DNA of 64,000 nucleotides, taken from Streptomyces luomodiensis (lineage in GTDB: Bacteria > Actinomycetota > Actinomycetes > Streptomycetales > Streptomycetaceae). The DNA lies in contig NZ_CP117522.1 in NCBI RefSeq assembly GCF_031679605.1, forward strand, positions 496,001-560,000. Direction: 5' to 3'. The notes under the pieces are model-generated. The model saw only the letters and a list, made by a program, of their open reading frames with translations, was not told the origin of the DNA and made no database searches. Within the stretch, counting starts at the first letter, position 1; each line of letters starts with the position of its first letter. Shown here piece by piece: positions 9,399 to 23,365 of this stretch. The translations under genes and the position numbers were made by a program.

Positions 9399-10265
9399 TC
9401 AGGCACCCTGGCTCCTCGGCCGCCGATCGCCCAGGCCCAGGCGCTTGAGGGCGTACGTGTCCAGGGCCGTCAGCACCCCGTTGAGGGCGAGTGTCATCGC
9501 CACCAGGACGATCAGGCCCGCGAACTCGGTGGGGGCGTCGAGATTGGTGGCCGCGGTGAACAGTTGGTGGCCGACCCCCTCGGTCGAGGCGATGAACTCC
9601 CCGCCGATGACCCCGAGGATGGCCAGCGGTCCGCCCGTCTTGAGGGCCGCGAAGAACGGTGCGGCCAGCGTGGGGATCGTCACGTAGCTGAGCACGTGGT
9701 GCCGGCGCCCGCCCATCACCTGGACGATCTCCACGAGTTCGCGTTCCCTCAGCCGCAGGCCCAGGTAGATGTTGTAGAAGACCACGAAGGCCACACCCAT
9801 CGCCGCGATCGTGATCTTCGACAAGGGACCGATGCCGAAGAACAGCAGGAAGAGCGGGGCGAGCGCGATCTTGGGGATGCCGTTCAGGGCCGCGATCAGC
9901 GGCTCGAACACCCGGCCCATGAGCGGGACCGAGCCGAGCACCAGGCCCATCACCGTGCCGATCGCCACGCCGATGCCGAACCCGGCCACCACCTCGAAAG
10001 TCGTCGTCTTGATGTCGGTCCACCCGGCCGACGAGCCGAGCAGCTTCCACAGGGCGTGTGACACATCGGTCGGCTTGCTGACGGCGTATTCGGGCAGGAC
10101 GGAACCGCTCATCACCTGCCAGAGGCCCAGGACGAGGGCGATCACCGCGATGCGCAGCACCACCACCAGGGCCGTGCTCCGCCACGCATCGCTTCCGACG
10201 CCTCTCTTCCTGGTCGCCACCTTGACCTCGGTCTTGCTCTCCACACTGCTGGTCGCAGTCACCAT
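9399..10265 (-). CDS. ABC transporter permease, TauC/SsuC type, 288 aa
   Basis: Inner-membrane channel subunit of a sulfonate/nitrate/taurine-type importer; relatives also import aromatic acids. About six membrane segments start near residue 30. The EAA loop that docks the ATPase is visible around GLRLRERELVEIVQVMGG. It lies 46 bp after the substrate-binding lipoprotein gene, while its ATPase partner is encoded 12 kb upstream at the head of the same-strand gene run. That split arrangement suggests one long transcript or a later rearrangement. Confidence 0.9.
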   Translation of the reverse strand: MVTATSSVESKTEVKVATRKRGVGSDAWRSTALVVVLRIAVIALVLGLWQVMSGSVLPEYAVSKPTDVSHALWKLLGSSAGWTDIKTTTFEVVAGFGIGVAIGTVMGLVLGSVPLMGRVFEPLIAALNGIPKIALAPLFLLFFGIGPLSKITIAAMGVAFVVFYNIYLGLRLRERELVEIVQVMGGRRHHVLSYVTIPTLAAPFFAALKTGGPLAILGVIGGEFIASTEGVGHQLFTAATNLDAPTEFAGLIVLVAMTLALNGVLTALDTYALKRLGLGDRRPRSQGA

Positions 10266-10311
10266 CGTCTGCTCCTTCCAGTCCTCATCGGGTGCGGCGG
10301 GCCCGGCCGTC

Positions 10312-11388
10312 TCACGGCAGGTAGGTATTGGTCCAGTCGTCAGAAGTGATCTTCGGGTCCTTGGCGAGGGTGTCCAGGCTGCGCACGAAGCCCAGGGTGG
10401 ACGTCCAGCCGGCGGCCGTCATCGAGACCTTCCTGGGCCACTCGACCTGCCGGAGGCTGCTCCGCAGCGCCTCGGCGGGCACGCCGGGCAGCGCCTTTTG
10501 GGCCACGCTCACCAGCGCCTTGTCCTTGCCGGCTTGCACATGTGTGCTCATGTAGTCCGTCGCCCGCTGGACGGCCGTGACGAACTTCGTCACGATCTCG
10601 GGGTGATCGGTGGCGTAGCTCTTCTCCGCCACCACGAACTGCCCGTAGCCGGCCTGTTCGGCGGACCACTCGGGCACCTTGTCCGGATCGGCGACCACGA
10701 CGCCGTCCCCGTCGCTCTGGACCTGTAGCGGAATGGGCTCGTTGGTGATGAACCAGTCGATCTGGCCGCTGTTCAGGGCGGCCTTGTCCGCCGCCGGACT
10801 CGGCAGCGTCGCCCACTTCACCTCGCCCGGGTCGACGCCGTGGGCCTTGAGGAAGATCCCCGCCTCGGCCTTGGTATTGGCGGAGCTGATGCCACCGGTC
10901 GAGTCCGCCAGCGCCTTGGCCACCTGGGCGGCGGGGGTCCTCGCGGTCAGCCCGTGCCGCTGGGCGAACTTCCTTCCGACGACGATGCCGAGCGGGTTGC
11001 CGCCGCCGTCGGCGGCCACCGCGATCTCCGGGATTCCCTTGGAGACAGCGGACAGGAACCCCGTCGGACTGTCGTGGAGGAACTGCACCGAATCCGCGTG
11101 CAGCGCCGCGGGCCCCGTCGAGGCGGTCAGCGTCACCAGCTTGACCTTCAGGCCCTGCGCGCGGAAGTAGCCGTTCGCCTCGGCCACCTGAAGCGGCATG
11201 TCGTAGATATTGCCCCCGGCCCCCACGGTGAGGCTGGTGAGTCCGTCCGAGGAGTCGCTGCCGCAGGCGGTGAGGAGCGCCGAACCGAACACCGCGGCCG
11301 AGGCCAGGGCGCACAGCCGCCGGCCCCTGCCGGGCCGTGGCCGGGCGCCCCTTCGGGCGGTACCGGCCGCCGGGTTGTCGTGTGTCAT
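10312..11388 (-). CDS. ABC substrate-binding lipoprotein, TauA/SsuA (NMT1) type, 358 aa
   Basis: Captures the substrate outside the membrane. A twin-arginine-like basic start (GRGRRLCALASAA) leads to a lipobox LLTAC with the lipidated Cys42, followed by the NMT1/SsuA fold (GAGGNIYDMPLQVAEANGYF, QFLHDSPTGFLSAV). Codon 1 is the ATG at 11388, with AGGAGACTGTTC upstream, and only 13 bp separate it from the carboxylesterase stop. The ligand is unknown; the surrounding enzymes suggest an aromatic or ring-cleavage-derived carboxylate. Confidence 0.9.
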   Translation of the reverse strand: MTHDNPAAGTARRGARPRPGRGRRLCALASAAVFGSALLTACGSDSSDGLTSLTVGAGGNIYDMPLQVAEANGYFRAQGLKVKLVTLTASTGPAALHADSVQFLHDSPTGFLSAVSKGIPEIAVAADGGGNPLGIVVGRKFAQRHGLTARTPAAQVAKALADSTGGISSANTKAEAGIFLKAHGVDPGEVKWATLPSPAADKAALNSGQIDWFITNEPIPLQVQSDGDGVVVADPDKVPEWSAEQAGYGQFVVAEKSYATDHPEIVTKFVTAVQRATDYMSTHVQAGKDKALVSVAQKALPGVPAEALRSSLRQVEWPRKVSMTAAGWTSTLGFVRSLDTLAKDPKITSDDWTNTYLP

Positions 11389-11401
11389 GAACAGTCTCCT
11401 G

Positions 11402-12997
11402 TCACCAGGCCCGCTGGGTACGGAAAAAGCGCTGCCAGAAGTCGAGTCGGGGCGGGTCCGCCAGCGGGATCGGCGCGAAGCCGCCCCCGACCTCCATGAC
11501 CGCGGGCGCCTCCGGTGTCCACGCCGGCCAGTGCGGCAGGCCAGGGCCGTTGGGGTCGCCGGTGGCCACGAAGTTGGCCCAGTAGCCGCTCATGGTCCGT
11601 GCGATGTCGCGGTCCTCGTCGGTCCACTCGGCACGGTCCGGGTGGAGGTTGCCGAACACGAAGTCGATCTCGGAGCCGTGCGCGGCGCGGCGGGTGCCCT
11701 GCCCCGTCGCCGGGGAGGCATGGGTCCAGAAGTACGTGTACACGGGCCGACTGGCGTGTGCGGCCCAGTCCTTCGCCCACAGCCAGGTGGAGATCCTGGC
11801 GTTGTCGCGCACCGCCTCGCAGTGGGCGCGCGCCGCCTCGTCGTCGGTGTCCGCCGGGTAGAGCCGCAGGAATTCCCCGGCCATCGCCCCGAACTTCCGA
11901 CGTGCCGCCGCGACGTAGTCCTCCCGGGTCACATGGACCGGAGGCGCGCCCGCCCGCCGGTCCTTGCGCCCCGCCGCCCGGTGGGCCGCGAAGGTGCTCT
12001 CCGGAACCGCCCCGCCCTCGTCGAGGTTGTTCCCGGCCAAGTACCAGACGTCGTTCTGCAGCCCCTTGCCGTACGTCTCCGCATAGCCGTGGGGGATCAC
12101 CCGGCCGTCGACGACCGGGCGGAACATCGGCGGTTTCGCCGAACTCCCCGTCTCGACGGCGGTGTCGACGGCCGAGACGTTGCCTTCGATCAGCTTCTGC
12201 CACGGCAGCGACCGCAGCCGCTGGAGGGTCCGCGCCCCGCGCTCCGCCGCGAACCGGGCGCCGGCGCTTTCGGCATCGGCCAGGGTCCGGTAGGACGTCG
12301 CCAGGTAGCGCAGTTCGGGGTCGCGGGAGTGGCGGGCGTGGCTCTGCGCGACCGCCCGCTGGAAGAGCCCCTTGGCCAGCGGTGACATGGCCAGGAAGTT
12401 CACCGATCCGGCGCCGGCCGACTGCCCGGCCACCGTGACCCGGTCCGGGTCGCCGCCGAAGTGGGCGATGTTGCGCCGGACCCATCGGAGCGCCGCGATC
12501 TGGTCGAGCAGTCCGTAGTTGCCGGAGACGTGGTGGCCGGATTCCTCGCTGAGCTCGGGGGTGGCCAGGAACCCGAAGGCGCCCAGGCGGTAGTTGAAGG
12601 TCACCACCACCACGCCCTGGCCGGCCAGGTGCTCGCCGTCGTAGCGGGGGTCGGCACCCGTGCCGATGCGGAAGCCGCCGCCGTAGATCCAGACGAGCAC
12701 CGGACGCGGCCGCTCATCCGCCGGGCCCGCCCCGGTCCAGACGTTGAGGTACAGGCAGTCCTCACTCATCGGCAGGTCGAGGCCGGCCAGCTCGGGGCCC
12801 GGCGCCTGCGGGCATATCGGGCCGAAGCCGTTGGCCTTGCGCACCCCGGTCCAGGGCACCGGGGGCTGGGGCGGTCTCCAGCGGAGATCCGCGACCGGCG
12901 GGGCGGCGTAGGGGATACCGCGGAAGACGGTGATCGACCGGTCCCGTCCCGGTATGCCCTCCACCAGGCCCGCTTCGGTCTTCGCTGGCTGGTGCAT
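11402..12997 (-). CDS. Type-B carboxylesterase, 531 aa
   Basis: Hydrolyses carboxylic esters. The family marks are complete: EDCLYLNVW near 80-87, the oxyanion segment IYGGGFR at 104-110, the nucleophile elbow GQSAGAGS (Ser193), the acid in GNNLDEGG, and the histidine in AAHGSEIDFVFGN. No signal peptide is seen, so it is cytoplasmic. Placed between importer genes and a GntR gene inside an aromatic-acid operon, it may free an acid from an ester, for example a phthalate- or hydroxycinnamate-type monoester; that substrate is inference. Confidence 0.9.
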   Translation of the reverse strand: MHQPAKTEAGLVEGIPGRDRSITVFRGIPYAAPPVADLRWRPPQPPVPWTGVRKANGFGPICPQAPGPELAGLDLPMSEDCLYLNVWTGAGPADERPRPVLVWIYGGGFRIGTGADPRYDGEHLAGQGVVVVTFNYRLGAFGFLATPELSEESGHHVSGNYGLLDQIAALRWVRRNIAHFGGDPDRVTVAGQSAGAGSVNFLAMSPLAKGLFQRAVAQSHARHSRDPELRYLATSYRTLADAESAGARFAAERGARTLQRLRSLPWQKLIEGNVSAVDTAVETGSSAKPPMFRPVVDGRVIPHGYAETYGKGLQNDVWYLAGNNLDEGGAVPESTFAAHRAAGRKDRRAGAPPVHVTREDYVAAARRKFGAMAGEFLRLYPADTDDEAARAHCEAVRDNARISTWLWAKDWAAHASRPVYTYFWTHASPATGQGTRRAAHGSEIDFVFGNLHPDRAEWTDEDRDIARTMSGYWANFVATGDPNGPGLPHWPAWTPEAPAVMEVGGGFAPIPLADPPRLDFWQRFFRTQRAW

Positions 12998-13028
12998 GGT
13001 TCTCTTTTCGGTCGGCGGCGGGCCTTCG

Positions 13029-13739
13029 TCACCGGGACGAGGCGTCGGCCGCGGAGGGGGCGCCCTCCCGTCGCGCCTGGAGGAGCAGTGCCTGCCGGGC
13101 GGCGGCGACGTGGTGGCGCATGGCGGCGATAGCCGCCTGGGGATTGCGGGTGACGATGGCCAGGAAGACGGCCTGGTGCTCCGCCAGCGATCCGGTGCGC
13201 GGATGCGGTGCGGAAAGGTCGCGGTACTGGCGCATCACCAGGGGGTACAGCAGGGTGTCGTACGCTCGGGCCAGGGTGTGCTGGTGGGCGGCCTCCTTCA
13301 CCTGCTGGTGGAAGCGCCGGTTGCCCCGGGAGTAGCCCGCCTCGTCCTCCCGGGACGCGCAGTCCTCCATCGTCTCCAGCGTGCCGCGCAGCGCTTGGAC
13401 GTCTTCGTCGGTGGCCCGCTCCGCGGCCTTGCCCGCCAGGGCGGATTCCAGTGTTTCGCGCGCCTCCAGGATGTCCGCGGCCTCCTCGACCGAGAAGCTC
13501 CGCGTGCGCACCCCGCGGTTGACCTCACTGGTGACGTAGCCCTCCTGGGTCAGCTGGACCAGGACCGCCCGCATGGTGCTGCGCGAGACGTCGAACATCC
13601 GGGTCAGGTCGGCCTCGGTGAGCCGGGTGCCCGGCTCGATGCTTCCCGACAGCAGCAGTGAGCGCAGCCCTTCGCATGTCTGGCTCTGCCGGGTCGGTGA
13701 GGGGCCCGCGTCCGCGTCGTCGAAGCCGTGGGAATCCAC
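13029..13739 (-). CDS. GntR-family (FCD) regulator, second copy, 236 aa
   Basis: Same architecture as the GntR at 8.6 kb: winged helix (LRSLLLSGSIEPGTRLTEAD, then FDVSRSTMRAVLVQL) and an FCD domain (GYSRGNRRFHQQVKEAAHQH, EHQAVFLAIVTRNPQ, MRHHVAAAR). The two proteins agree over most of their length and are clearly paralogues. The GTG at 13739 has AGGGTG upstream. It lies in line with the operon, 31 bp before the carboxylesterase start and 103 bp after the amidohydrolase stop, so it may also have its own promoter in that gap. Confidence 0.88.
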   Translation of the reverse strand: MDSHGFDDADAGPSPTRQSQTCEGLRSLLLSGSIEPGTRLTEADLTRMFDVSRSTMRAVLVQLTQEGYVTSEVNRGVRTRSFSVEEAADILEARETLESALAGKAAERATDEDVQALRGTLETMEDCASREDEAGYSRGNRRFHQQVKEAAHQHTLARAYDTLLYPLVMRQYRDLSAPHPRTGSLAEHQAVFLAIVTRNPQAAIAAMRHHVAAARQALLLQARREGAPSAADASSR

Positions 13740-13842
13740 TGTGATCACCCTGTAGGTCTGCTCGAAGAGGACAACTGTTCGGGGAAGTATCACCGACGCG
13801 CGGTCGGCCTCCGGCGAGCGCGGAACGGCCGCGGGCGGGCGG

Positions 13843-14703
13843 TCAGGCGCGGGCGCCGGCCAGTCCCGGGTACAGGCGCCGGGCCGTACCCGCGAAGATC
13901 TCCTGCCGGTCGTGCTCCGACAGCACCACCAGGACCGCCTGGGCGAGGGCGAGGAGTTCCGGCAGGGACTGCTCGGCCGCCGGGCAGTTCGAGCCCCAGG
14001 CGATCCGCTCGGCGCCGAACGCCTCGACGACCGGTCCGAGGAAGTCACCCGCCCGCTCGCCGGCATCGCGCAGCCGTTCCAGGTTGCGGTGGGTGAGCTT
14101 GAGGTGCAGGCCCGGATGCACGGCGAGCTCCGCGACCTCGGCTCCGGCGCGGGCGGGCGAGGCGGCGATGTCGGGGTAGCCGATGTGGTCGAGCAGCACC
14201 CGCACGCCGGGGAACCGCTCCAGGAGTTCCACCAGGTGCTTGGTGGCCGGCCCGAGGCGCATCTGGAGGCACACGGGTACGCCCAGGTCCCCGGCCCGCT
14301 CCCAGAACGCGTACGTCTCCGGTGCGGCGAACCACTCGCCCTGGGTGGGCACGGTGCTGCCGCTGGTGAACAGCCGCACCCCGGCCAGACCGCCCTCGCC
14401 GAACGCGGCCTCGAGCGAGTCGGCGGCGTCCGGGCGCAGCGGGTCGACGGTGCCGACGGCCACGAAGCGCCCCGGCCGGCGGCGGCTGCTGTCGAGGACG
14501 TACGCGTTGTCGTAGCCGTAGTGCGTGGTGGCCTGGACCAGGACGGCCTGGTCGATGCCCGTCGCGTCCATGCGGTCGACCATGCCCTCGGCGGTCACCG
14601 GCCGGGCGGCGGCCCATTCCGACTGCTTGCCGCCGATCGGCGCCTTGGGGTAACGGGTCAGGTCATCGGAGATGATGTGGCAGTGTGCGTCGACGACGTC
14701 CAC
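13843..14703 (-). CDS. Amidohydrolase-2 family protein, 2-pyrone-dicarboxylate lactonase-like, 286 aa
   Basis: TIM-barrel metal hydrolase. DAHCHII at residues 5-11 supplies the first histidines, with LLDHIGYPD near 168-176 and a closing WGSNCP near 240. Family members of this size include LigI-type 2-pyrone-4,6-dicarboxylate lactonases and related sugar-lactone or imide hydrolases. Assignment to the LigI reaction is suggested by the LigJ-type gene in the same operon, not proven. The GTG at 14703 has AGGGAG upstream. It lies 43 bp downstream of the decarboxylase-like gene. Confidence 0.75.
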   Translation of the reverse strand: MDVVDAHCHIISDDLTRYPKAPIGGKQSEWAAARPVTAEGMVDRMDATGIDQAVLVQATTHYGYDNAYVLDSSRRRPGRFVAVGTVDPLRPDAADSLEAAFGEGGLAGVRLFTSGSTVPTQGEWFAAPETYAFWERAGDLGVPVCLQMRLGPATKHLVELLERFPGVRVLLDHIGYPDIAASPARAGAEVAELAVHPGLHLKLTHRNLERLRDAGERAGDFLGPVVEAFGAERIAWGSNCPAAEQSLPELLALAQAVLVVLSEHDRQEIFAGTARRLYPGLAGARA

Positions 14704-14746
14704 GATGGGTGCTCCCTTGTGTTCGGTGTCTTCTGTACGAGCCGGC

Positions 14747-15730
14747 TCAGGCGTCCGGGTAGTCGCCCGCGGCGAACAGCGATCGCGGGTCGGCGGGGAA
14801 GTCCGCGTCGAGCAGACCCTGGTCCGTGGCGAACCGCACCATCGCGTGCAGGCTGGGCTCGTTGGCCGTGATGCCGTAGGGGACGGGGTCGCCGCCGATC
14901 TGCTTCCCCTGACGGGCCAGCCGGGGCACCGCCGACCACTCGGGCCGGGCGGCGAGGTGCCGGCGCTTGCTCTCCGCGAACGCCGCGTACAGCTTGCCCG
15001 GCAGACCGGGGTCGCGCTCGACGAGCTCGGAGCGCACCGAGATCAGCGAGTGCAGCGGGTAGACGCCGGTCCGCAGGTAGTGGTCCACGGCGAGCGTCCC
15101 GGCCTCGGGGAAGAGCGGGTACGGCCCGTCTTCGCCACCGGGCTCCGGTTCGGCCGCCGCCGTCCACCCGGCCCGGGGCGCGCCCGCCCGCCCGGTCCCG
15201 GCGTTGCCGGTCAGCGCGGCGTCGATCTCACCGTTGCGCAGCAGCTCGCCCAGCGAGCGGCCGTCGGTGACCCGTTCGACGTTGGGCGGGACCCGGCCCT
15301 CGATGTGGTCGTCGTCGTCGACCACCCAGGTGATCGTGTCAAGGTCCACGCCGTACTCGTCGCGCAGGACGCCCCGCACCCATACGCCCGTGCTCACCGA
15401 GTAGGCGCGTACGCCGATCCGGCGTCCCTCCAGGTCCCGCGGCACACGGATACCGGAGTGCGCGGCGCACTGCACGTCGCCGTGGTGGAAGCGCCGGTTG
15501 AGGAACACCGGGATCGCGGTCAGCGGTATCCCTTCCTGGCGTGCCATCAGATACGACACCGGCGCCAGTTCGCACACGTCGAACTCCAGGTCCCGGATCA
15601 TCCGCCGGTAGGCGCCGATGACCGGCGTGACCTCCACCGGCTCGACCAGGTAGCCGTCGATCCCGACGTCACCGTCCAGCAGCGGCCGCGCGTGCGGGTA
15701 ATCCCCGAAGACCACCGTGAGCTTGTCCAT
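14747..15730 (-). CDS. 4,5-dihydroxyphthalate decarboxylase-like protein (periplasmic-binding fold), 327 aa
   Basis: Resembles the Pht5 family: a substrate-binding-protein fold without a signal peptide, used as a cytoplasmic decarboxylase. Characteristic segments are DVCELAPVSYLMARQ near 71-85, DLEGRRIGVRAYSVSTGVW near 120-138, and YPLHSLISVRSELVERDPGL in the C-terminal half. The length matches the ~330-aa family. It follows a shorter paralogue by 50 bp and a third, deleted copy lies at 17.9 kb. The likely reaction is loss of CO2 from a hydroxylated aromatic dicarboxylate. An ABC-binding-protein role is less likely because no export signal is present. Confidence 0.75.
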   Translation of the reverse strand: MDKLTVVFGDYPHARPLLDGDVGIDGYLVEPVEVTPVIGAYRRMIRDLEFDVCELAPVSYLMARQEGIPLTAIPVFLNRRFHHGDVQCAAHSGIRVPRDLEGRRIGVRAYSVSTGVWVRGVLRDEYGVDLDTITWVVDDDDHIEGRVPPNVERVTDGRSLGELLRNGEIDAALTGNAGTGRAGAPRAGWTAAAEPEPGGEDGPYPLFPEAGTLAVDHYLRTGVYPLHSLISVRSELVERDPGLPGKLYAAFAESKRRHLAARPEWSAVPRLARQGKQIGGDPVPYGITANEPSLHAMVRFATDQGLLDADFPADPRSLFAAGDYPDA

Positions 15731-15780: not shown

Positions 15781-16659
15781 TCAGCCGCCGAGCCGGGACG
15801 GCGGTACGCCGAGTGCCGCGCAGGTCCGCTCGACGAGTTCGTCGTAGTCCACCGCCCGCGGGATCACGCCCTGCTCCAGCGCGTAGGCGGCGGCCTTGGT
15901 GAACGCGCCGCGCAGGGCGCCGAAGCCCACGGGGTGCAGGGGCACCGGCCCCGGCTCGGCCGTGGCGGTGAGCACCGACCGCATCGCGTCGTAGGCGGCG
16001 AGGATGGCGGCGGAGTGCTCCGCGGCGGCTTTCCCGGAGACCCCGACCACATGGTTGACCGGGATGAACCCCTGGTCCCTCGACCACTGTTCGGCGATCC
16101 GGTGGGCGTCTGCGATGGCGGTGCGGATGCGGTCGTCGGAGGGCAGTCCATTGCCCATGATCCCGAAGTCGAGCCGGCCTTCCAGGAAGTCCGCCTGGAG
16201 CTTGGCCCCCTCCGGGGCCCGCTGCACCCAGGACGGGTCGTCGGCACCGTCGACGTGGCTGCCCTCGTACGTCGTCCAGTCCACCGTGCGCAGGTCGACG
16301 CCGTAGCTCTCGGTGAGGAAGCCGCGCATCCACACGCCGGTGGTCTGGCTCCAGGAGCGGACTCCGACGCTGTGCCCTGCCACATCGGCGACCGACAGTC
16401 TGCCGAGGGTCACCAGGGTCTGGTGCTGGTGGCGTCCGAGGGTGGTGACCGGCAGCAGCAGTACCGGCTTGCCGTGGGCGACGGCCTGGAGAACGGTCAC
16501 GATCGCCACTTCGCACAGGTCCGCGTCCGACTCGTTCACGAAACCGCGGGAGGCCTTGTGCACCGGGCTGATGTCGAGCCGTTCGGGCTCCGTGCCCGCC
16601 TCGCGGACCGCCGACACCGCGGCGGCCGCGAGATCGTCACGGCCGAGCACCAACTTCAT
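15781..16659 (-). CDS. Second dihydroxyphthalate-decarboxylase-like / NMT1-fold protein, 292 aa
   Basis: Paralogue of the downstream protein with the same landmarks: DADLCEVAIVTVLQAVAHG, SVGVRSWSQTTGVWMRGFL, and a late GFIPVNHVVGVSGK. It is about 35 residues shorter and less like typical Pht5, so it may be a partner subunit or act on a different acid. No signal peptide. GGAGAGAGAG precedes the ATG at 16659. The C-terminal segment FTKAAAYALEQGVIPRAVDY also reappears, altered, in the remnant at 17949-18176. Confidence 0.65.
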   Translation of the reverse strand: MKLVLGRDDLAAAAVSAVREAGTEPERLDISPVHKASRGFVNESDADLCEVAIVTVLQAVAHGKPVLLLPVTTLGRHQHQTLVTLGRLSVADVAGHSVGVRSWSQTTGVWMRGFLTESYGVDLRTVDWTTYEGSHVDGADDPSWVQRAPEGAKLQADFLEGRLDFGIMGNGLPSDDRIRTAIADAHRIAEQWSRDQGFIPVNHVVGVSGKAAAEHSAAILAAYDAMRSVLTATAEPGPVPLHPVGFGALRGAFTKAAAYALEQGVIPRAVDYDELVERTCAALGVPPSRLGG

Positions 16660-16699: not shown

Positions 16700-17878
16700 T
16701 CAGACCTGCTGACCGGGGTTGGCGGTCCGCGCTGTGTGGTGCCGCTCGTGGTGCTGCCGCAGCAGGTCGACGCCGAAGTCATTGCCGTTGGGGGTACGGA
16801 CGATCGTGTGGATGTGCCGGCGCGAGTGGTAGTCGTTGTCGAAGATGACGCCGGGCATGTGCTCGAACTCGACGAGGATCACCGGGCTGTGGAAGCGGTA
16901 GTAGAAGGTGGAGTCGGGGTCGCCGATCCACCCGAAGTGCGTGTCCCCCTCATGGGCCAGCACCTCCCGCATGCGCACCCTGGCCTGGTCGTCACGGGCC
17001 CGGTTGACGTACAGGCCGAGGAGTCGGAGCGCGGTGTCCCGCTGGCCGGACGACATCTCACTCAGCCGCAGTCCCTCGTAGTCGAGCTCCCAGTTGTCCC
17101 GGAAGGCTCCGACGAACAGTTCCTCCGGCTGTGTGTCCGCGATGGTGGCGCGTTCCCGCTGCCGGCGGCCCAGTTGGGTGAACAGCTCGTGGCCGAGTCC
17201 CTCCTCGGCGCGGAAGGCCATGGTCCCGGCGTACTTCCCGGACCCGGCGACCGCCGGCTCGGCGCCGAGGAAGGAGGGGGTGAGGACCATCTGGTCCCCG
17301 ATGAGAACGCAGTTGACGTTGACGTGGTGTCCGTCGAGCTGCCAGCCCCACGGGCCGCCGTTCTCCGGCTCCCCGTAGACGGAGAACCAGTACAGCCACT
17401 CGTTGAGCCCTTCCTCGTTGTCGCTCAGCTCGCCGATGGTGCGGTTGAGGTGCATCAGGTCGACCAGCTGGCCGTACCCGTACGCGCTGAGGCTTTCCCG
17501 CATGACGTTCATGGCCCGCAGGCGCTGCACATCGTCGAAGTCCTCGAGCAACATGCCGTGGCGCAGGAAGTACCGGGCGCCGTTGTTCCAGTGCCGCCAG
17601 CTCACGTCGTCCATCGGGAACCGGCCCTCGGCGAGCTGCCGCTCGGTCAGGCCCGCCAGGTAGTCCTCCGCGGCCTGGTACACCTTGCGGACGTCCGCGC
17701 CGGTGCCGCGCAGCGGGAACAGTCCCGGCCGGATGCCGTCCGAAGTGGCCACTCCCCGAAAGGGCTCGTTCGCCGCCTTCACCCGCCAGGCGACCTTTTC
17801 GAGCAGCTCCGGTGTCCAGACCTTCGGCTTGCGCGTGGGCGGGTTGCCCCGCTTCCTCAGCCCTACCGGCTCCTTCAT
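16700..17878 (-). CDS. DUF3500 family protein, 392 aa
   Basis: Resembles the DUF3500 family, which has no established biochemical role that I know of. Conserved-looking features are WGWQLDGHHVNVNC near 180-195, FLGAEPA shortly after, HEGDTHFGW in the last third, and HIHTIVRTPNGNDFG near the end. The His-rich core (DGHHVN, HFGW, HSRRHIH) could bind a metal; that is speculation. No signal peptide or membrane segment. AAAGGAGG gives it the best ribosome site in the operon. It stands between a deleted and an intact decarboxylase-like gene, so a direct part in the pathway is likely. Confidence 0.75.
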   Translation of the reverse strand: MKEPVGLRKRGNPPTRKPKVWTPELLEKVAWRVKAANEPFRGVATSDGIRPGLFPLRGTGADVRKVYQAAEDYLAGLTERQLAEGRFPMDDVSWRHWNNGARYFLRHGMLLEDFDDVQRLRAMNVMRESLSAYGYGQLVDLMHLNRTIGELSDNEEGLNEWLYWFSVYGEPENGGPWGWQLDGHHVNVNCVLIGDQMVLTPSFLGAEPAVAGSGKYAGTMAFRAEEGLGHELFTQLGRRQRERATIADTQPEELFVGAFRDNWELDYEGLRLSEMSSGQRDTALRLLGLYVNRARDDQARVRMREVLAHEGDTHFGWIGDPDSTFYYRFHSPVILVEFEHMPGVIFDNDYHSRRHIHTIVRTPNGNDFGVDLLRQHHERHHTARTANPGQQV

Positions 17879-17948
17879 GACCGCCCCTCCTTTCGATGTT
17901 CCGGCACGGGTGCGCCGCCCAGGTGGCGCACCCGTGCCGAGCGCCTCC

Positions 17949-18176
17949 TCAGGTGTCGAGGAAGGCCGTCTTCTCCTGTGGCTCCGCGACATCCACCGGT
18001 TGCGTGATGAGGCCCGGTTCCAGGGCGTAGCGGCCGGCGATCTCCAGACAGGCGACCAGCGACGCGCTCCACCCGGCCGCGACCGCGCGTCCGGCGGATG
18101 AGTCGTCACCGGTGGTCCGGCCGTACGCGCGGACGCCCAGGCGCCGGCCGGTGAGCACCGTCAGCGGTGTGGCCAC
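17949..18176 (-). pseudogene. Internally deleted dihydroxyphthalate-decarboxylase-like remnant, 75 codons
   Basis: Reading from a GTG at 18176, the peptide joins LTGRRLGVRAYGRTTG (the mid-protein motif of the two downstream paralogues) almost directly to YALEPGLITQPVDVAE (their C-terminal motif). About 150 residues between, and the N-terminal third, are missing, yet the frame stays open to a normal stop. It lies 20 bp after the ThDP enzyme stop. A purposeful mini-protein cannot be excluded, but a decayed third copy is the simplest view. Confidence 0.6.
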
Positions 18177-18196
18177 GCGTGTCCCGCTCCGCCCGC

Positions 18197-19852
18197 TCAC
18201 ACGTCTTCGCCGTACTGGATGCGGCGGTAGGGGGTGCTCAGCACCTGGCGGGTGATGCGGACGTCGATCACGGTCGGCCGGGGGGCCGCCACGTACTCGG
18301 CCAGCGCGGCGCGCAGTTCCTCCGGTGTGCGGACGGTGGCCCCGCCGCCGCCGAGTGCCTGGGCGACCCGGCCCAGTTCGGGGGTGGAGATGGTCGCCAG
18401 CTCCGGGTCGAGTCCCTTCGCCTTCGCCTTGTGGTACTCGGCGCCGAGGCCCTGGTCGTTCATCACGACGACCAGCAGCGGGATGTCGTACCGGCACGCC
18501 GTCTCGAACTCGGACAGGTGCATGAGGAAGCTGGCGTCGCCCTCCACCACGAAGCCGGGCTTGTTGCCCCGCGCGACCATCTGGCCGAGAGCGATCAGCG
18601 GGGCCTGGCCGATGGCGCCGAACATGCCGTAGTTGGAGAGCACCTCGCGCGACCGCTGGAAGAGCATGGTGCCGAAGTCGGTCTGGTGGCCGCTGCCCAG
18701 TACCAGCCCCATCTCGCCGGGGAGTTCCTGGTCGAGGATCCAGATCGCCTCGCGCGGGTCGAGCCGTCCGGGCTCGCGTACGTACTCGGCCGGCGGCTGG
18801 AGCCGGGCGGCCAGGTGCTGCCGGACGGCGTCGATGTGGAAGCCCTCCAGCCGGACGGACCGCTCCTGAAGCGCCCGGGTCAGCTCGGTGAGGGCGGTGA
18901 CCGCGTCGGCCTGGAGGTAGCAGTCCGCCGTCTTGCCGTTGCCCATCACCAGGTGCGGGGCGGTGTCGATCTGGATGTAGGTGGCCTCGGGGTAGAGGTA
19001 GCCGCTCTCGATGGTGTAGTGGTTCAGGCTGGCGCCCACCGCGATCACGCAGTCGGCCTCCTGGAGCAGTTCCATCGACGCCTTGTCGCCGAACAGACCC
19101 GACAGGCCGACGTGGAAGTCGGTGCGGTCGCACAGCCAGTTCTTCGCCTGGAGGGTGGTCGCCAGCAGGGCGCCGGTCTGTTCCTGGAGGGCGAGGATCT
19201 GCTCGCCGGAGTCCGCCTTGCGCGCGCCCCGCCCGGCGATGATCACCACGCGCTTGGCGTTCTGGATCAGATCGCAGGCGGCCTGGAGCCTGGCCGGGTC
19301 CGGCAGCAGCCGGGGCTTCTCGATCAGGGCGGTGGACGGCACGTAGTCCTCGTCGTAGTCGTCCAGCTCGGCCACCTGGACGTCGAAGGGCGCGCTGATC
19401 ATGACCGGCTTGGACTCGGTACGGGCCAGGTAGAAGGCCCGCCGCACGGCCTCCTGGGCGTTCTCGGGCCGGGTCACGTGGATGAACTCGCACTCGATCG
19501 CGGCGGCGAAGCGCCGCTGGTCGAGGTACTGGGTGGCGCCCTCGTCGCCCAGCGGGGTCTCACCGCAGAAGGCGATCAGCGGAGTACGCGCCCGGCTCGC
19601 CACGATCATCGAGGTGGCCAGCTGCGAGACGCCGGGGCCGCTGGTCGTGGTGACCACACCCGGCGCTCCCGCGCCGCGGGCCCAGCCGTCCGCCATGCCG
19701 AGCCCGGAGCCCTCGTGCCGCACCTCGTACAAGCGCACCCCGCGGTCGGCGAGTGCCGCCATCCAGTGCATGTTGGCGTCGCCCATCATGCCGAAGACAT
19801 CACTGGTGCCTTCCCGGACGAACGCCTCGGCCAGTGCCTCGTAGACCTTCAC
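18197..19852 (-). CDS. Thiamine-diphosphate-dependent enzyme, acetolactate synthase/2-oxoacid decarboxylase family, 551 aa
   Basis: Three-domain ThDP enzyme. The N-terminal Pyr domain has the catalytic glutamate in VRHEGSG (Glu47) and TSGPGVSQLATSM. A central domain follows, and the PP domain carries GDASFLMHLSEFETA near 435 and VVVMNDQGLGAEY, corresponding to the GDG...NN cofactor motif but written GDA...ND. The Mg-binding Asp and Asn are kept. Likely 2-oxo-acid decarboxylation or carboligation; which one cannot be read. The GTG start overlaps the TGA of the LigJ-type gene (GTGA), so translation is coupled. Confidence 0.85.
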   Translation of the reverse strand: MKVYEALAEAFVREGTSDVFGMMGDANMHWMAALADRGVRLYEVRHEGSGLGMADGWARGAGAPGVVTTTSGPGVSQLATSMIVASRARTPLIAFCGETPLGDEGATQYLDQRRFAAAIECEFIHVTRPENAQEAVRRAFYLARTESKPVMISAPFDVQVAELDDYDEDYVPSTALIEKPRLLPDPARLQAACDLIQNAKRVVIIAGRGARKADSGEQILALQEQTGALLATTLQAKNWLCDRTDFHVGLSGLFGDKASMELLQEADCVIAVGASLNHYTIESGYLYPEATYIQIDTAPHLVMGNGKTADCYLQADAVTALTELTRALQERSVRLEGFHIDAVRQHLAARLQPPAEYVREPGRLDPREAIWILDQELPGEMGLVLGSGHQTDFGTMLFQRSREVLSNYGMFGAIGQAPLIALGQMVARGNKPGFVVEGDASFLMHLSEFETACRYDIPLLVVVMNDQGLGAEYHKAKAKGLDPELATISTPELGRVAQALGGGGATVRTPEELRAALAEYVAAPRPTVIDVRITRQVLSTPYRRIQYGEDV

Positions 19853-20919
19853 TTTCCGGACTCCTTCACGTTCGCCGCGGCCGTCGCCCGCGCCTTCAGG
19901 ACGCCGTCGAGCCGTGCGAAGACCCGCAGCGCGTTGCCTCCGTAGACCGCCTGCCGGTCGGCGTCGCTCAGGCTGTCGATGGAGTCGAGGGTGTACTTGG
20001 TGTCGTCGAACCGCCGCCCGGTCTCGGGGTCCACGCTGCGGACGGCGCCGATCATCTCCGAGGCGAACAGCACGTTCCGGGCGGGGATGATGTCCAGCAG
20101 CAGTTCCATGCCCCGCTTGTGGTACACGCAGGTGTCGAAGTAGACGTTGCGCAGGACCGACTCCTCCAGCGGCGGCCGGCCCCGGTCCTGCATCATTCCC
20201 CGGTAGCGGCCCCAGTGGTACGGGACGGCGCCGCCGCCGTGCGGCAGGATCAGCTTCAGCGTCGGGAAGTCCTTGAACAGATCCGACTCGCACAGCTGCA
20301 TGAACGCCGCGGTGTCGCCGGCGAGGTAGTGGGCGCAGGTGCCCTGGAGCGCGGGGTTCCGCGACATCGCGACATGGACCATCGCGGGGACGTCGAGCTC
20401 GACCATCTTCTCGTAGAGCGGGTAGTAGACCCGGTCGGTCAGCGGCGGGGCCTGGTAGTACCCGTCGGACGGGTCCGGGTTGAGCAGACAGCCGACGAAA
20501 CCCAACTCCTCGACGCAGCGTTCGAGTTCGGCGACCGAGTTGCGGACGGAGGTGGCGAGGGCGTCACCCGGGGACTGCGGAAGCTGGCACACCGCCACGA
20601 ACCGCTCGGGGAAGAGGCCGCTCACCCGGGCGATCAGGTCGTTGCTGACCCGGGACCAGTCGAGGCTGGTCCGCTCGTCACCGTAGTGGTGGGCCATCTT
20701 GCCCGCGCCCGGCGAGAAGATCGTCAGGTCGGTGCCACGCTCGGTCTGGAGCTTCAGCTGCCCGTTCTCGATGGCGGTGCGGATCTCGTCGTCGGTGATG
20801 TGGAGTTCGTCGGGCGAGATGCGCGCGCCGGACTCCTCGAAGGCCCTGATCTGCCGCTCCCGCCACCTGCCCAGCGCGGGGGGCGCTGTGGTGAAGTGGC
20901 CATGGCAGTCGATGATCAT
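19849..20919 (-). CDS. ligJ: 4-oxalomesaconate hydratase-like amidohydrolase (LigJ type), 356 aa
   Basis: Recognised from its LigJ-like start MIIDCHGHFT (metal ligands His6, His8), DLTIFSPGAGKMAHHYGDE, AVCQLPQSPGDA, GCLLNPDPS, the PHGGGAVPYHWGR segment and YFDTCVYHKRG. LigJ adds water to 4-oxalomesaconate to form 4-carboxy-4-hydroxy-2-oxoadipate (CHA) in 4,5-cleavage of protocatechuate or gallate. Related decarboxylases share the fold, but the length and motif order fit LigJ best. It lies 62 bp after the HpcH/HpaI aldolase gene and overlaps the ThDP gene, which fits a hydratase feeding an aldolase. Confidence 0.82.
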   Translation of the reverse strand: MIIDCHGHFTTAPPALGRWRERQIRAFEESGARISPDELHITDDEIRTAIENGQLKLQTERGTDLTIFSPGAGKMAHHYGDERTSLDWSRVSNDLIARVSGLFPERFVAVCQLPQSPGDALATSVRNSVAELERCVEELGFVGCLLNPDPSDGYYQAPPLTDRVYYPLYEKMVELDVPAMVHVAMSRNPALQGTCAHYLAGDTAAFMQLCESDLFKDFPTLKLILPHGGGAVPYHWGRYRGMMQDRGRPPLEESVLRNVYFDTCVYHKRGMELLLDIIPARNVLFASEMIGAVRSVDPETGRRFDDTKYTLDSIDSLSDADRQAVYGGNALRVFARLDGVLKARATAAANVKESGK

Positions 20920-20981
20920 GTATTACTCCGAAACTCGCGTTGCGGTGGTCCGTGGTGTGCGGCCGGCTCCGGGGGTGCGCC

Positions 20982-21842
20982 TCAGGCCCGGCCGGTCAGC
21001 TCCCGGCCCTTGTCCAGGCCGGGGTAGGTGCGCACCGGCGCCGACATCAGGAACCGGTAGCCGTCGTCGAGCACCTGCTTGACGTTGCCGGCCGTCACAT
21101 GGGGGTGGCCCACGGCCACCCCGCGTTCGCCGCAGATGTCGAGGATCCGTCGCTTGCACTCCAGGACGCGCGGGTGTTCGTACTGGCGCGGTACCCCCAG
21201 TTCCTGGCTCATGTCGCCCTCGCCGACGAGGACGAGGCCGATGCCCGGCACCTGGTCGAGGATGTCCGGCAGGTTCTCGATGCCGAGCTGGTCCTCGATC
21301 ATGAGGCCCACGAGGATCTCCCCGTCCGGCACGAGCGGCCACACATCGGCCCTGGCGTAGTACTCGGTGTTCGGGATGCCCCAGTAGCGCGTCGCCGCGT
21401 GCGGGCCGTCCCCGCGCAGACCGGCGGGCTCGTAGTGCGGGGCGTCGGGCAGCCGCGGGTAGCGGCAGGCGGCGACGGCGTTGCGGGCCTCCTCCACGGT
21501 GGAGACATGCGGCCAGACGATGCCGAACGCACCGAGGTCGAGGGCCTGTTTGGCGTGCCACTGGGCCTTCTCGGCGCCGTTGGCGGGGATGCGCACCAGC
21601 GGGGTGACGGTGGGCGCGAGGCTGTCCGCGTCGAAGATCCGGCGCCGGTTGAGCAGGTACTGGAAGCTGTCCCGGAGCCCGTTGATGTCCCAGGGCTTGT
21701 GCTCCATCTCGAACACCACCGCGTCGTAGTCCGAGGTGCTGAACTCGATCGCGGACGCCGGGTCGGCCGCCGAGAAGGACGCGAAGACGTGCTGCCCCGC
21801 GTCCAGGGCGCCGATCACCTTGTTGAGCCTGGACGTTGTCAT
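20982..21842 (-). CDS. HpcH/HpaI-family aldolase, 286 aa
   Basis: Class II pyruvate/oxaloacetate aldolase fold. Conserved features are DAVVFEMEHKPWD near 40-52, TPLVRIPANGAEKAQWHAKQ, LDLGAFGIVWPHVSTVEEAR, LVGLMIEDQLGIENL with the metal-binding Glu, and VLVGEGDMSQELGV. These enzymes split 4-hydroxy-2-oxo acids. Next to a LigJ-type hydratase a CHA-like substrate is plausible, which would replace a LigK-type enzyme in this operon; this is inference. The ATG overlaps the TGA of the CoxG-like gene (ATGA). Confidence 0.87.
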   Translation of the reverse strand: MTTSRLNKVIGALDAGQHVFASFSAADPASAIEFSTSDYDAVVFEMEHKPWDINGLRDSFQYLLNRRRIFDADSLAPTVTPLVRIPANGAEKAQWHAKQALDLGAFGIVWPHVSTVEEARNAVAACRYPRLPDAPHYEPAGLRGDGPHAATRYWGIPNTEYYARADVWPLVPDGEILVGLMIEDQLGIENLPDILDQVPGIGLVLVGEGDMSQELGVPRQYEHPRVLECKRRILDICGERGVAVGHPHVTAGNVKQVLDDGYRFLMSAPVRTYPGLDKGRELTGRA

Positions 21843-22555
21843 CGCCGACCTCCCTGGCCGAGTGCGTCACCGGATGTGTGCGCCGAGCGGGATGCCGCCT
21901 GCGGCGGCTGCCCCTTCCGCCGGGATCGCAGCCCTGCCCACCAGGCACGCAGGCGGCCGAACAGGCCGGTCGGCCGGGGCGGAGCCGCGACCGCGCGCGG
22001 CTCGGACGACGCCGCCGCGGACGGCTCGGGGGACACCGCCGTGAGCGGCTCGGGGGCGCCTGCCGCGCCTGCCGTGTGCGGCTCGGAGGGCGCCGCACAC
22101 ACCTTGACCAGTTCGTCGGTGAACTCCTTGGTCATCCTGGAGACCACCATCCCGGCACCGGACTCGATCAGCTTGGCGAGCTTGCCGTTGAGTTTGATCT
22201 CACCGTCGCAGAAGACCCGTGAGGTGCCGGGGGTCTCCCCCTCGACGACCCGGAAGGTGGCGCCGGCGTGGAAGCGGGTGGCGCCCTGCCCGTCCGCGCC
22301 GCGGGCCGAGAGACGGCCCTCACGTGCGGACTCGTCCAGGTCCAGGGAGACCCGGGCGGCGAACTTGACCCGGAGACCGCCGAACCTGATGGCCAGGGTT
22401 CCGTCGAAGGACCCGTCCTCGTGCGACGGGCCGAGTTCGGCGCCGCCGATGCAGGACACGACGGCCGAGGGATCGGAGATGACCTCCCAGACACGTTCGG
22501 GCGGACTCGGTACCGCGATCTCTTCCGTGATCGATATCAAAGCTGTGAACCTCAC
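21839..22555 (-). CDS. SRPBCC (CoxG-like) protein, 238 aa
   Basis: The N-terminal ~150 residues form a START/SRPBCC domain of the CoxG type (VPSPPERVWEVISDPSAVVS, GAELGPSHEDGSFDGTLAIR). A Pro/Ala/Glu-rich linker and a basic tail with WAGLRSRRKGQ follow. CoxG-like proteins help mature or tether oxidoreductases and bind hydrophobic ligands; no coxMSL-type partner is present here. The start is uncertain: GTG at 22555 has no ribosome site, while a TTG five codons later sits after GAGG. It is second in the long run, 15 bp after the ATPase gene. Confidence 0.78.
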   Translation of the reverse strand: MRFTALISITEEIAVPSPPERVWEVISDPSAVVSCIGGAELGPSHEDGSFDGTLAIRFGGLRVKFAARVSLDLDESAREGRLSARGADGQGATRFHAGATFRVVEGETPGTSRVFCDGEIKLNGKLAKLIESGAGMVVSRMTKEFTDELVKVCAAPSEPHTAGAAGAPEPLTAVSPEPSAAASSEPRAVAAPPRPTGLFGRLRAWWAGLRSRRKGQPPQAASRSAHTSGDALGQGGRR

Positions 22556-22570
22556 TCGGCGGTGGTGGTG

Positions 22571-23365
22571 TTACGCGGCGGCCTGCTGCTCGGCGGCGAA
22601 GAGACCCCACAGGTCGTTGTAGAGCTCCGAGAACTCGCGCGACTCGACGAGCGAGCCGATGGTCCGTGGCCGCTCGAAGGGAACCGTGATGACACGGCGG
22701 ACCGTGCCGGGCCCGCGCGACATCACGATGACCTCATCGGCCAGGTAGATCGCCTCGTTGAGGTCGTGCGTGACGAAGACCAGCGTCCCGTTCTGCTCCT
22801 GCCAGATGTTGAGGAGTTCCTGCTGGAGGTTGAGGCGGGTGATGGCGTCCAGCGGCCCGAACGGCTCGTCCATCAGCACGATGGACGGGTTGTAGATCAG
22901 CGCCCGCGCGATCGCGCAGCGCTTCTGCATACCGCCGGACAGCTCCCGGGGGAAGTGGTTCTCGAAGCCGGTCAGGCCGACCAGCCTGACCCAGTGGGCG
23001 ATGCGTTCCTCGCGTTCCTCCTTGGGGACCTTGCGGAACTTGAGCGCCAGGCCGATGTTGCCCCTGACGCTGAGCCAGGGCAGCAGATGGGACTGCTGCG
23101 TCACGTAGGCCGCTTCGGAGTTGACGGCGGTGACGCGCTCGCCGGCGAAGTGGACCTGTCCCTGGCTGGGGGTGAGCAGACCGGCGGCCAGGTTGAGGAT
23201 GGTGCTCTTTCCGCACCCACTGGGTCCGATCACGGCGACGACCTTGCCGCGATCGATGGTGAGCGACACGTCCTCGATCGCCGGTCGGTGGCTGCCGGGA
23301 AACTCCAGGGTGACGTATTCGAAGCGGAGTGCCTCCGGATGGGAGTTGCGCTGACTGGTCGACAT
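22571..23365 (-). CDS. ABC transporter ATPase, TauB/SsuB type, 264 aa
   Basis: Energises the importer whose binding protein and permease are encoded at 9.4-11.4 kb. Walker A GPSGCGKST near 47-55, Q-loop AYVTQQSHLLPW, signature LSGGMQKR, Walker B SIVLMDEPFGPLD and switch VFVTHDLNEA are all intact. GGAGACAGAT precedes the ATG. It is the first gene of the minus-strand run. The GntR-type palindrome at 23560 lies 195 bp upstream. Confidence 0.92.
   Translation of the reverse strand: MSTSQRNSHPEALRFEYVTLEFPGSHRPAIEDVSLTIDRGKVVAVIGPSGCGKSTILNLAAGLLTPSQGQVHFAGERVTAVNSEAAYVTQQSHLLPWLSVRGNIGLALKFRKVPKEEREERIAHWVRLVGLTGFENHFPRELSGGMQKRCAIARALIYNPSIVLMDEPFGPLDAITRLNLQQELLNIWQEQNGTLVFVTHDLNEAIYLADEVIVMSRGPGTVRRVITVPFERPRTIGSLVESREFSELYNDLWGLFAAEQQAAA

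What the first reader, a model, noticed from the sequence alone, without database searches (positions are those of the whole stretch)
9399..23365. Large minus-strand catabolic operon of unassigned pathway
Fourteen same-strand genes combine a split TauABC importer, esterase, regulator, LigI-like lactonase, Pht5-like decarboxylases, a DUF3500 protein, a ThDP enzyme, a LigJ-like hydratase, an HpcH/HpaI aldolase and a CoxG-like protein. Several starts overlap preceding stops, which argues for coordinated expression. No known pathway that I can name contains this exact set, and there is no ring hydroxylase, so the entry compound is not obvious.
Basis: partly seen in the sequence, partly recalled or inferred. 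Interest (0 to 1): 0.85.

Follow-up and report, generated by a model that had tools for sequence, protein, structure and literature searches.

The report
Conserved DUF3500 aromatic-acid catabolic operon
A row of 13 genes in a Streptomyces-type bacterium, likely one operon, has its eleven core genes together in six named genera of actinobacteria, encodes a close relative of a late-step enzyme of a known aromatic-ring breakdown route, and holds an uncharacterised DUF3500 protein that is predicted to do the ring-opening step that known routes give to other enzyme families.

Summary
The gene row is real: 13 intact minus-strand genes at 9399-23365, closely spaced, plus an in-frame remnant of a third Pht5-like gene. 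The ABC importer is split as described. All eleven core genes recur in 26 of 37 actinobacterial loci of six named genera. The remaining loci, where not cut by contig ends, suggest two modules: M1 (CoxG-aldolase-LigJ-ThDP-Pht5B-LigI) and M2 (importer-DUF3500-regulator). In 9 of 9 genomes checked where M1 is not joined to DUF3500, a window-type LigJ (81-94%) with M1 genes lies elsewhere, far off or on another contig in five. LigJ closely resembles solved 4-oxalomesaconate hydratases, which points to a 4-oxalomesaconate route to pyruvate and oxaloacetate. Single-sequence probes found no known ring hydroxylase or ring-cleaving dioxygenase near DUF3500 in 42 stretches (39 distinct). The best candidate ring opener is DUF3500, a family proposed for that role in a fungus and found in other bacterial aromatic clusters. 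Against this, its one solved relative (ApmL) is titled a dehydratase. I propose a gallate-type substrate, which is inferred. The roles of ThDP, CoxG and the several Pht5-like proteins stay open.

The parts
22571..23365 (-). ABC importer ATPase (TauB/SsuB type), first gene
   Evidence: PF00005 116 bits; ATG with a purine-rich AGGAGG-type stretch upstream; found in 35 of 37 relatives' loci
21839..22555 (-). CoxG-like START-fold protein
   Evidence: PF06240 44 bits, cut-off 22.2; role unknown
20982..21842 (-). HpcH/HpaI-family aldolase, predicted to split 4-carboxy-4-hydroxy-2-oxoadipate
   Evidence: PF03328 77 bits; solved relatives are mostly 2-oxoacid aldolases, best E 7e-15; overlaps CoxG by 4 bp
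19849..20919 (-). 4-oxalomesaconate hydratase (LigJ family)
   Evidence: 444 bits, E 2.8e-132 over residues 1-345 to PDB 6dxq/6dwv
18197..19852 (-). ThDP-dependent enzyme of the acetolactate synthase / 2-hydroxyacyl-CoA lyase superfamily, substrate unknown
   Evidence: three TPP domains; best PDB match 132 bits; best NCBIfam 234 bits against a cut-off of 620; overlaps LigJ by 4 bp
17949..18170 (-). remnant of a third Pht5-like gene (Pht5C), internally deleted
   Evidence: in-frame remains matching Pht5C of L037, L038, L039, L041 and L048; short match also in S465 (L060, cover 0.27) and in KL109B (L066, 0.32)
16700..17878 (-). DUF3500 protein, predicted ring-opening (or dehydrating) metalloenzyme
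15781..16659 (-). Pht5-like protein A
   Evidence: PDB 9jp7 (4,5-dihydroxyphthalate decarboxylase) E 1.4e-7; no Pfam family
14747..15730 (-). Pht5-like protein B
   Evidence: PDB 9jp7 E 2.4e-35
13843..14703 (-). LigI-like amidohydrolase-2 (predicted lactonase)
   Evidence: PF04909 125 bits; PDC hydrolase LigI E 8e-12
13029..13793 (-). GntR/FCD regulator (start uncertain)
   Evidence: PF07729 91 bits, PF00392 45 bits; start candidates
11402..12997 (-). carboxylesterase
   Evidence: PF00135 381 bits; in 26 of 37 loci
10312..11388 (-). substrate-binding protein of the importer (NMT1/TauA type)
   Evidence: PF13379 58 bits, PF09084 58 bits
9399..10265 (-). permease of the importer (TauC type)
   Evidence: PF00528 73 bits
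8562..9338 (+). convergent GntR/FCD regulator; membership of the system uncertain
   Evidence: PF07729 100 bits

Best explanation
This is a conserved gene cluster, likely one catabolic operon, that likely imports a hydroxylated aromatic acid, predicted to be gallate or a compound turned into gallate, and would degrade it to pyruvate and oxaloacetate through 4-oxalomesaconate, with the DUF3500 protein as the predicted ring-opening enzyme. Shown by sequence: gene order, conservation, the two modules, LigJ homology and the keeping of LigJ in genomes where it is not linked to DUF3500. Inferred steps: (1) TauABC imports the acid and the carboxylesterase frees it from an ester. (2) The Pht5-like proteins strip carboxylates from a more carboxylated precursor. 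(3) DUF3500 cleaves the ring between two neighbouring hydroxylated carbons; for gallate such a cut gives 4-oxalomesaconate or its lactone directly, so no LigC dehydrogenase is needed and none is encoded in the operon. (4) The LigI-like enzyme opens the lactone. (5) LigJ hydrates 4-oxalomesaconate. (6) The HpcH/HpaI aldolase cleaves the product. The ThDP enzyme and CoxG are conserved in the module but their steps are unknown.
For: LigJ: 444 bits, E 2.8e-132 to solved 4-oxalomesaconate hydratases. Eleven core genes together in 26 of 37 loci, six named genera. M1 found elsewhere in 9 of 9 genomes where it is not joined to DUF3500; in five it is about 75 kb off or on another contig. Type-A DUF3500 with window-type LigJ: family sample 6 both / 0 DUF3500 only / 1 LigJ only / 143 neither of 150, Fisher p 4.9e-10; class sample 4 / 0 / 0 / 390 of 394, p 1e-9; in these samples the two genes mostly share one locus, so the numbers largely restate linkage. 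Of 40 LigJ loci in 28 genomes, 13 have LigB-family genes, 21 have Pht5-like genes, 0 have both (p 2e-6). Ring-attacking enzymes probed are absent from 42 DUF3500 stretches, and the probes do find them in control loci. DUF3500 of A. nidulans is proposed as the dioxygenase for 1,2,3,5-tetrahydroxybenzene (PMC12388069, passage; FAMeDB PMC13094099, passages). In the sister clade (tree, support 0.963), 11 of 15 DUF3500 genes have a ring hydroxylase or a lower-pathway enzyme (FAH, HpaH, HpcH/HpaI, RraA or dienelactone hydrolase) within about 10 kb, 8 of 15 a ring hydroxylase.
Against: The one solved DUF3500 relative, 9x86, is titled 'dehydratase ApmL in Amipurimycin biosynthesis' and its alignment keeps the same H, H, E, H, H set, so these residues do not argue for a dioxygenase over a dehydratase. 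The fungal role is called 'putative' in the review I saw. Some sister-clade clusters hold another ring-cleaving candidate (hpaD in L054, an intradiol-type dioxygenase about 7 kb from DUF3500 in L053), and 4 of 15 (L032, L033, L042, L043) show none of the probed genes. The gallate guess rests on chemistry alone and leaves the Pht5-like proteins, ThDP and CoxG without firm roles. LigJ-LigI-Pht5 loci without DUF3500 exist that show no probed oxygenase. G130 carries M1 genes with no DUF3500 found. The LigI match is weak (E 8e-12). L089 keeps DUF3500 with importer and regulator but no Pht5-like gene beside it.
Confidence: 0.4

Rival explanations
1. DUF3500 is a hydratase/dehydratase like ApmL, and the imported compound is not aromatic: a pyrone or other cyclic polycarboxylate that is decarboxylated (Pht5-like), delactonised (LigI-like) and funnelled into 4-oxalomesaconate without any oxygenase.
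Against: The fungal DUF3500 is tied to ring cleavage. Sister-clade bacterial DUF3500 genes often sit in clusters with ring hydroxylases (8 of 15). One LigJ-Pht5 locus, L147, carries a Rieske oxygenase and a reductase, so a Pht5-LigJ set can lie with aromatic hydroxylation.
Confidence: 0.3
2. The operon is an accessory set for protocatechuate/gallate 4,5-cleavage and relies on a LigAB-type dioxygenase encoded elsewhere in the genome.
For: Own genome holds two LigB-family genes; the one at C1:9620583 lies beside a LigJ-like (37%) and RraA-like genes.
Against: In the 40 LigJ loci LigB and Pht5 never share a locus; 12 loci carry a LigAB 80-100% identical to L150's, 8 of the 13 LigB loci a GFO/IDH gene of LigC type, beside their own LigJ; the operon has no LigC.
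Confidence: 0.12
3. A phthalate or phthalate-ester operon with Pht5-like 4,5-dihydroxyphthalate decarboxylases and an esterase.
For: Pht5B matches solved 4,5-dihydroxyphthalate decarboxylase, E 2.4e-35; an esterase and an importer are present.
Against: No match to three Rieske queries in the first 40 kb of the window or in 42 related stretches; no dihydrodiol dehydrogenase among the operon genes; LigJ and the aldolase are not needed for making protocatechuate (pathway knowledge).
Confidence: 0.1

Closest known systems
Protocatechuate/gallate 4,5-cleavage pathway (LigABCIJK of Sphingobium, gal of Pseudomonas; recalled) and its likely streptomycete versions L152-L157, L159, L160, L162, L164, L165, L180
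   Same: LigJ; a LigI-like lactonase; an aldolase; predicted end products pyruvate and oxaloacetate
   Different: no LigAB, no LigC; HpcH/HpaI aldolase instead of RraA-type LigK; adds DUF3500, Pht5-like proteins, ThDP, CoxG and a TauABC importer
Fungal 1,2,3,5-tetrahydroxybenzene pathway (A. nidulans AN10530; PMC12388069 and PMC13094099, passages)
   Same: a DUF3500 protein as putative ring opener in catabolism of gallate
   Different: no monooxygenase or FAH hydrolase in the window operon; feeds LigI/LigJ-type steps; bacterial
Bacterial type-B DUF3500 clusters (L040, L044, L046; Thioclava L054)
   Same: DUF3500 near an HpcH/HpaI aldolase; sister clade in the tree
   Different: they carry a flavin monooxygenase, FAH proteins, an HpaH-like protein, a dienelactone hydrolase and, in L040, L044 and L046, a second DUF3500 gene
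ApmL/Amc20 dehydratase of amipurimycin biosynthesis (PDB 9x86)
   Different: antibiotic biosynthesis; 29% identity over the aligned part
pht/oph phthalate operons (recalled)
   Same: Pht5-like proteins, esterase, importer
   Different: no Rieske oxygenase, reductase or dihydrodiol dehydrogenase

Membership tests
LigJ 4-oxalomesaconate hydratase | full-length similarity to solved LigJ, above relatives LigY and gamma-resorcylate decarboxylase | tested here: met
   444 bits against 209 bits for LigY and 67 for gamma-resorcylate decarboxylase; N-terminal HxH kept in the alignment
LigJ 4-oxalomesaconate hydratase | hydration of 4-oxalomesaconate | not testable with these tools
   needs an enzyme assay
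LigI 2-pyrone-4,6-dicarboxylate hydrolase | clear similarity to solved LigI | tested here: inconclusive
   E 8e-12, 48 bits
Pht5 4,5-dihydroxyphthalate decarboxylase | similarity to solved 9jp7 | tested here: inconclusive
   Pht5B E 2.4e-35, Pht5A only E 1.4e-7; paralogues may differ in reaction
DUF3500 (PF12006) | score over Pfam cut-off | tested here: met
   290 bits, cut-off 27.2
LigABCIJK 4,5-cleavage pathway | linked LigAB dioxygenase | tested here: not met
   no LigAB match in the first 40 kb of the window or in 42 DUF3500 stretches (39 distinct), positive controls found
LigABCIJK 4,5-cleavage pathway | LigC-type GFO/IDH dehydrogenase in the operon | tested here: not met
   Pfam scans of all 13 operon genes
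Phthalate (pht/oph) operon | Rieske phthalate dioxygenase | tested here: not met
   three Rieske queries without a match in the first 40 kb of the window or in 42 stretches
Fungal tetrahydroxybenzene pathway | DUF3500 protein | tested here: met
Fungal tetrahydroxybenzene pathway | decarboxylating flavin monooxygenase and FAH-like hydrolase in the cluster | tested here: not met
   no flavin-monooxygenase match in the first 40 kb (one query); no FAH domain among operon genes. The FAH feature is recalled from the original paper, which is not held
ApmL-type dehydratase | shared fold | tested here: met
ApmL-type dehydratase | dehydratase activity | not testable with these tools
   needs an assay

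The most novel reading that the evidence does not exclude
DUF3500 proteins are a new, widespread class of aromatic ring-opening metalloenzymes in bacteria, not only in fungi. This operon is a modular polyphenol pathway in which a DUF3500 enzyme replaces LigAB/GalA and feeds 4-oxalomesaconate directly, with paralogous Pht5-like decarboxylases and a ThDP enzyme as further new steps.
Probability: 0.35. Interest if true: 0.85.

Novelty: new variant of a known kind. Interest (0 to 1): 0.62.

Why it matters
If DUF3500 opens rings in bacteria, a family with at least thousands of members (7,991 of 8,000 scored candidates passed in one capped search) gains a function, and a pathway that FAMeDB (PMC13094099, passage) says 'currently seems restricted to fungi' may gain bacterial counterparts. 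The split modules tell the experimenter which genes to test together, and LigJ loci without LigAB suggest that streptomycetes reach 4-oxalomesaconate without the known dioxygenase. Even under the dehydratase rival, a conserved importer-to-pyruvate pathway of unknown substrate is made testable.

Tried and rejected
Phthalate-ester operon: rejected as main reading, no oxygenase or dihydrodiol dehydrogenase. Ellagic-acid route (lactonase plus decarboxylase, LigY-like hydrolase): considered and dropped because the hydratase scores far better as LigJ (444 bits) than as LigY (209 bits). Pht5-like as a replacement tautomerase (LigU/GalD): not excluded; the own genome holds two PrpF-family genes elsewhere, so a tautomerase need not be missing.

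Limits and dropped rows: the oxygenase probes were one to three single sequences per family, so a distant oxygenase can be missed. Three of the 42 stretches are the same contigs twice (L037/L093, L038/L068, L048/L065). L071 and L096 come from one genome. In one search one sequence (L061) was dropped because its translated stretch held a stop. Of the 34 DUF3500 matches, one is the window's own, 23 lie in the 20 stretches fetched and 10 were not fetched. Statistics treat genomes and loci as independent although they are related. The regulator query in the synteny scripts was the untrimmed 345-aa frame, because the start string typed for it did not match.
Full report
What is there. The window lies in a 10.04-Mb single-contig genome; the closest named record found is Streptomyces sp. 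S465 (DUF3500 98% identical). Between 23365 and 9399 on the minus strand lie 13 intact genes. Counting the remnant described below as a unit, gaps run from -4 to 73 bp; without it ThDP and DUF3500 are 318 bp apart. Most starts have a purine-rich stretch upstream, judged by eye. Domain scans give ABC ATPase, CoxG, amidohydrolase-2, HpcH/HpaI aldolase, ThDP enzyme, DUF3500, a second amidohydrolase-2, GntR/FCD regulator, carboxylesterase, NMT1-type binding protein and permease; two further proteins resemble solved 4,5-dihydroxyphthalate decarboxylase. Between ThDP and DUF3500 lies an internally deleted in-frame remnant of a third Pht5-like gene; relatives hold it intact. S465 shows the same kind of short match (L060, cover 0.27) and so does KL109B (L066, 0.32).

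Conservation. A scan of one genome per species kept the best 80 of 341 loci encoding DUF3500 relatives. Thirty-seven of them (L060-L096) are 60-98% identical. Of these 37, 26 hold all eleven core genes, with the nine from ATPase to LigI in one order. They are Streptomyces, Nonomuraea, Actinophytocola, Amycolatopsis, Actinomadura, Planomonospora and unnamed actinobacteria. The binding-protein and permease genes swap order in L083 and L088. L084, L087, L093 and L094 are or may be cut by contig ends. The other 43 loci (L097-L139, 42-48% identical, many phyla) lack the block as a whole; L098 has binding protein, permease and ATPase in a row with DUF3500 about 1.2 kb further on. In the family sample, 5 of the 20 DUF3500 stretches fetched carry the block; three of these five are the same contigs as L065, L068 and L093.

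Two modules. In L063, L064, L072, L073, L078, L084, L089, L091 and L094 the CoxG-aldolase-LigJ-ThDP block is not joined to DUF3500 as in the window. L073 shows LigJ at its very edge, L084 is cut by a contig end just before DUF3500, and L091 has a 57% LigJ-like gene beside DUF3500. A search of those nine genomes found a LigJ 81-94% identical to the window's in 9 of 9. Around each lie CoxG, aldolase and ThDP, with a LigI-like gene in all nine and Pht5B in eight; L216 shows only a 43% Pht5-like match at its edge and a 45% LigI. Judged by equal contig lengths and positions, L072, L073 and L078 have it about 10 kb away, L084 about 19 kb, L063 about 75 kb; L064, L089, L091 and L094 have it on other contigs. 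So M1 and M2 can travel apart but are kept in the same genome. Eight of these nine M1 loci (all but L211) also sit beside a further Pht5-like/LigI-like pair, perhaps an alternative entry. Co-occurrence: with DUF3500 at E <= 1e-130 and LigJ at 80% identity or more, 6 of 150 family genomes have both, none DUF3500 only, one (G130) LigJ only, 143 neither (p 4.9e-10). In the class sample (LigJ at E <= 1e-170) 4 of 394 have both and 390 neither (p 1e-9). The own genome is in both samples, the samples overlap, and in the family genomes the two genes share one locus, so these numbers mostly restate linkage; the nine unjoined genomes are the stronger test.

Which LigJ clusters exist. One search gave 40 LigJ matches in 28 of 150 genomes, and I looked at the surroundings of all 40. 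Thirteen have a LigB-family gene: 12 match the fused LigA-LigB of L150 at 80-100% and L181 at 26%; 8 of the 13 also have a GFO/IDH gene. Twenty-one have Pht5-like genes: 7 window-type (including G130), 4 LigJ-RraA-LigI-Pht5, 10 with RraA and LigJ and two Pht5-like genes. Six have neither and none has both (Fisher p 2e-6; relatedness ignored, stretches of about 5 kb either side). The four LigJ-RraA-LigI-Pht5 loci match none of the oxygenase probes; of the ten, the wider stretch L147 holds a Rieske/LigXa protein and a reductase, and two (L175, L177) an intradiol-type match. So Pht5-like genes mark LigJ loci that do not carry LigAB.

Lower pathway. The LigJ-like protein matches solved 4-oxalomesaconate hydratases at 444 bits over residues 1-345, against 209 bits for LigY. 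The HpcH/HpaI protein resembles solved 2-oxoacid aldolases. By established pathway knowledge, hydration of 4-oxalomesaconate and aldol cleavage give pyruvate and oxaloacetate. The LigI-like protein is only distantly like PDC hydrolase (E 8e-12).

The ring step. Single-sequence probes for Rieske, flavin and LLM oxygenases, LigAB, LigB, HpaD, intradiol and cupin enzymes found none in the first 40 kb of the window or in 42 DUF3500 stretches (39 distinct), while the same probes found their families in control loci. Of the nine M1 loci (L208-L216), three Nocardia loci have a ferredoxin-reductase match and L215 a flavin-monooxygenase match. DUF3500 is the remaining candidate. A review passage says the A. 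nidulans DUF3500 protein AN10530 is a putative dioxygenase turning 1,2,3,5-tetrahydroxybenzene into 5-hydroxydienelactone (PMC12388069); FAMeDB lists the family for that pathway, printed 'DUF3550' with IPR021889, and calls the pathway so far fungal (PMC13094099). In the sister clade of 15 bacterial DUF3500 genes, 11 have a ring hydroxylase or a lower-pathway enzyme near: for instance Rieske, VanB reductase and HpcH/HpaI (L051); Rieske and FAH (L053, with an intradiol-type dioxygenase further on); FAH, HpaH and HpcH/HpaI with a flavin monooxygenase (L054, with hpaD also near); FAH, RraA, dienelactone hydrolase and flavin monooxygenase (L044; L040, L046). Eight of the 15 have a ring hydroxylase (L040, L044, L046, L051-L054, L058; L052 by its annotation). 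Four (L032, L033, L042, L043) show none of the probed genes. The tree joins that clade to the window's with support 0.963.

Mechanism and chemistry. Gallate bears three neighbouring hydroxyls; cutting between two of them gives 4-oxalomesaconate or, as lactone, 2-pyrone-4,6-dicarboxylate (established chemistry of gallate dioxygenases, recalled). That is what LigI- and LigJ-type enzymes need, without LigC. The esterase would free gallate from esters and the Pht5-like proteins would make it from carboxylated precursors. I give this whole statement 0.4, the lower route alone about 0.8, and DUF3500 as ring opener about 0.45. ThDP and CoxG are kept in M1 but unexplained.

Verdict. A real, conserved, modular gene cluster, likely a catabolic operon. 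Novelty: a new variant of the 4-oxalomesaconate pathways, with a chance that DUF3500 is a new bacterial ring-opening class.

Noticed in passing
window 25015-25695, 26861-27466, 27525-28958 (+): Two flavoprotein (UbiX-type) genes and a UbiD-family decarboxylase next to the operon, with an AraC regulator (25763-26683, -) between; possibly a second aromatic-acid decarboxylation locus. Both UbiX genes are also next to the operon in L060.
   Followed up: no
window 23529-24944 (+): MFS transporter divergent from the operon (start uncertain); a related gene recurs near the operon in several Streptomyces loci (L060-L068, L085, L090).
   Followed up: no
L040, L044, L046, L054: Bacterial DUF3500 clusters with flavin monooxygenase, FAH, HpaH-like, HpcH/HpaI and dienelactone hydrolase genes, three of them with two DUF3500 genes: possible bacterial counterparts of the fungal tetrahydroxybenzene pathway.
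   Followed up: partly
L148 (G130): Aldolase-LigJ-ThDP-Pht5A-Pht5B-LigI-GntR-esterase but no DUF3500; none found in that genome, 93% complete.
   Followed up: partly
L208-L210, L212-L216: A further Pht5-like/LigI-like pair beside M1, in some with an ABC ATPase or permease: maybe an alternative entry module.
   Followed up: partly
L142 (own genome C1:4272000-4291900): A second LigJ (60%) with DeoC-type aldolase, two aldehyde-dehydrogenase-type genes, an amidohydrolase and an MFS transporter.
   Followed up: no
L143 (own genome C1:9611000-9630900): LigB-family gene with a LigJ-like (37%) and RraA-like genes: probably another ring-cleavage locus.
   Followed up: no
L031 (own genome C1:1888000-1907000): Second DUF3500 gene of this genome, in another part of the tree, with a Gly/Pro/Thr-rich N-terminus; no operon gene beside it.
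   Followed up: no
window 31750-32682 (-): APH(6)/hydroxyurea-kinase-family gene.
   Followed up: no
window 4439-6943 (+): Enoyl-CoA hydratase, alcohol dehydrogenase and thioesterase-family genes in a row.
   Followed up: no
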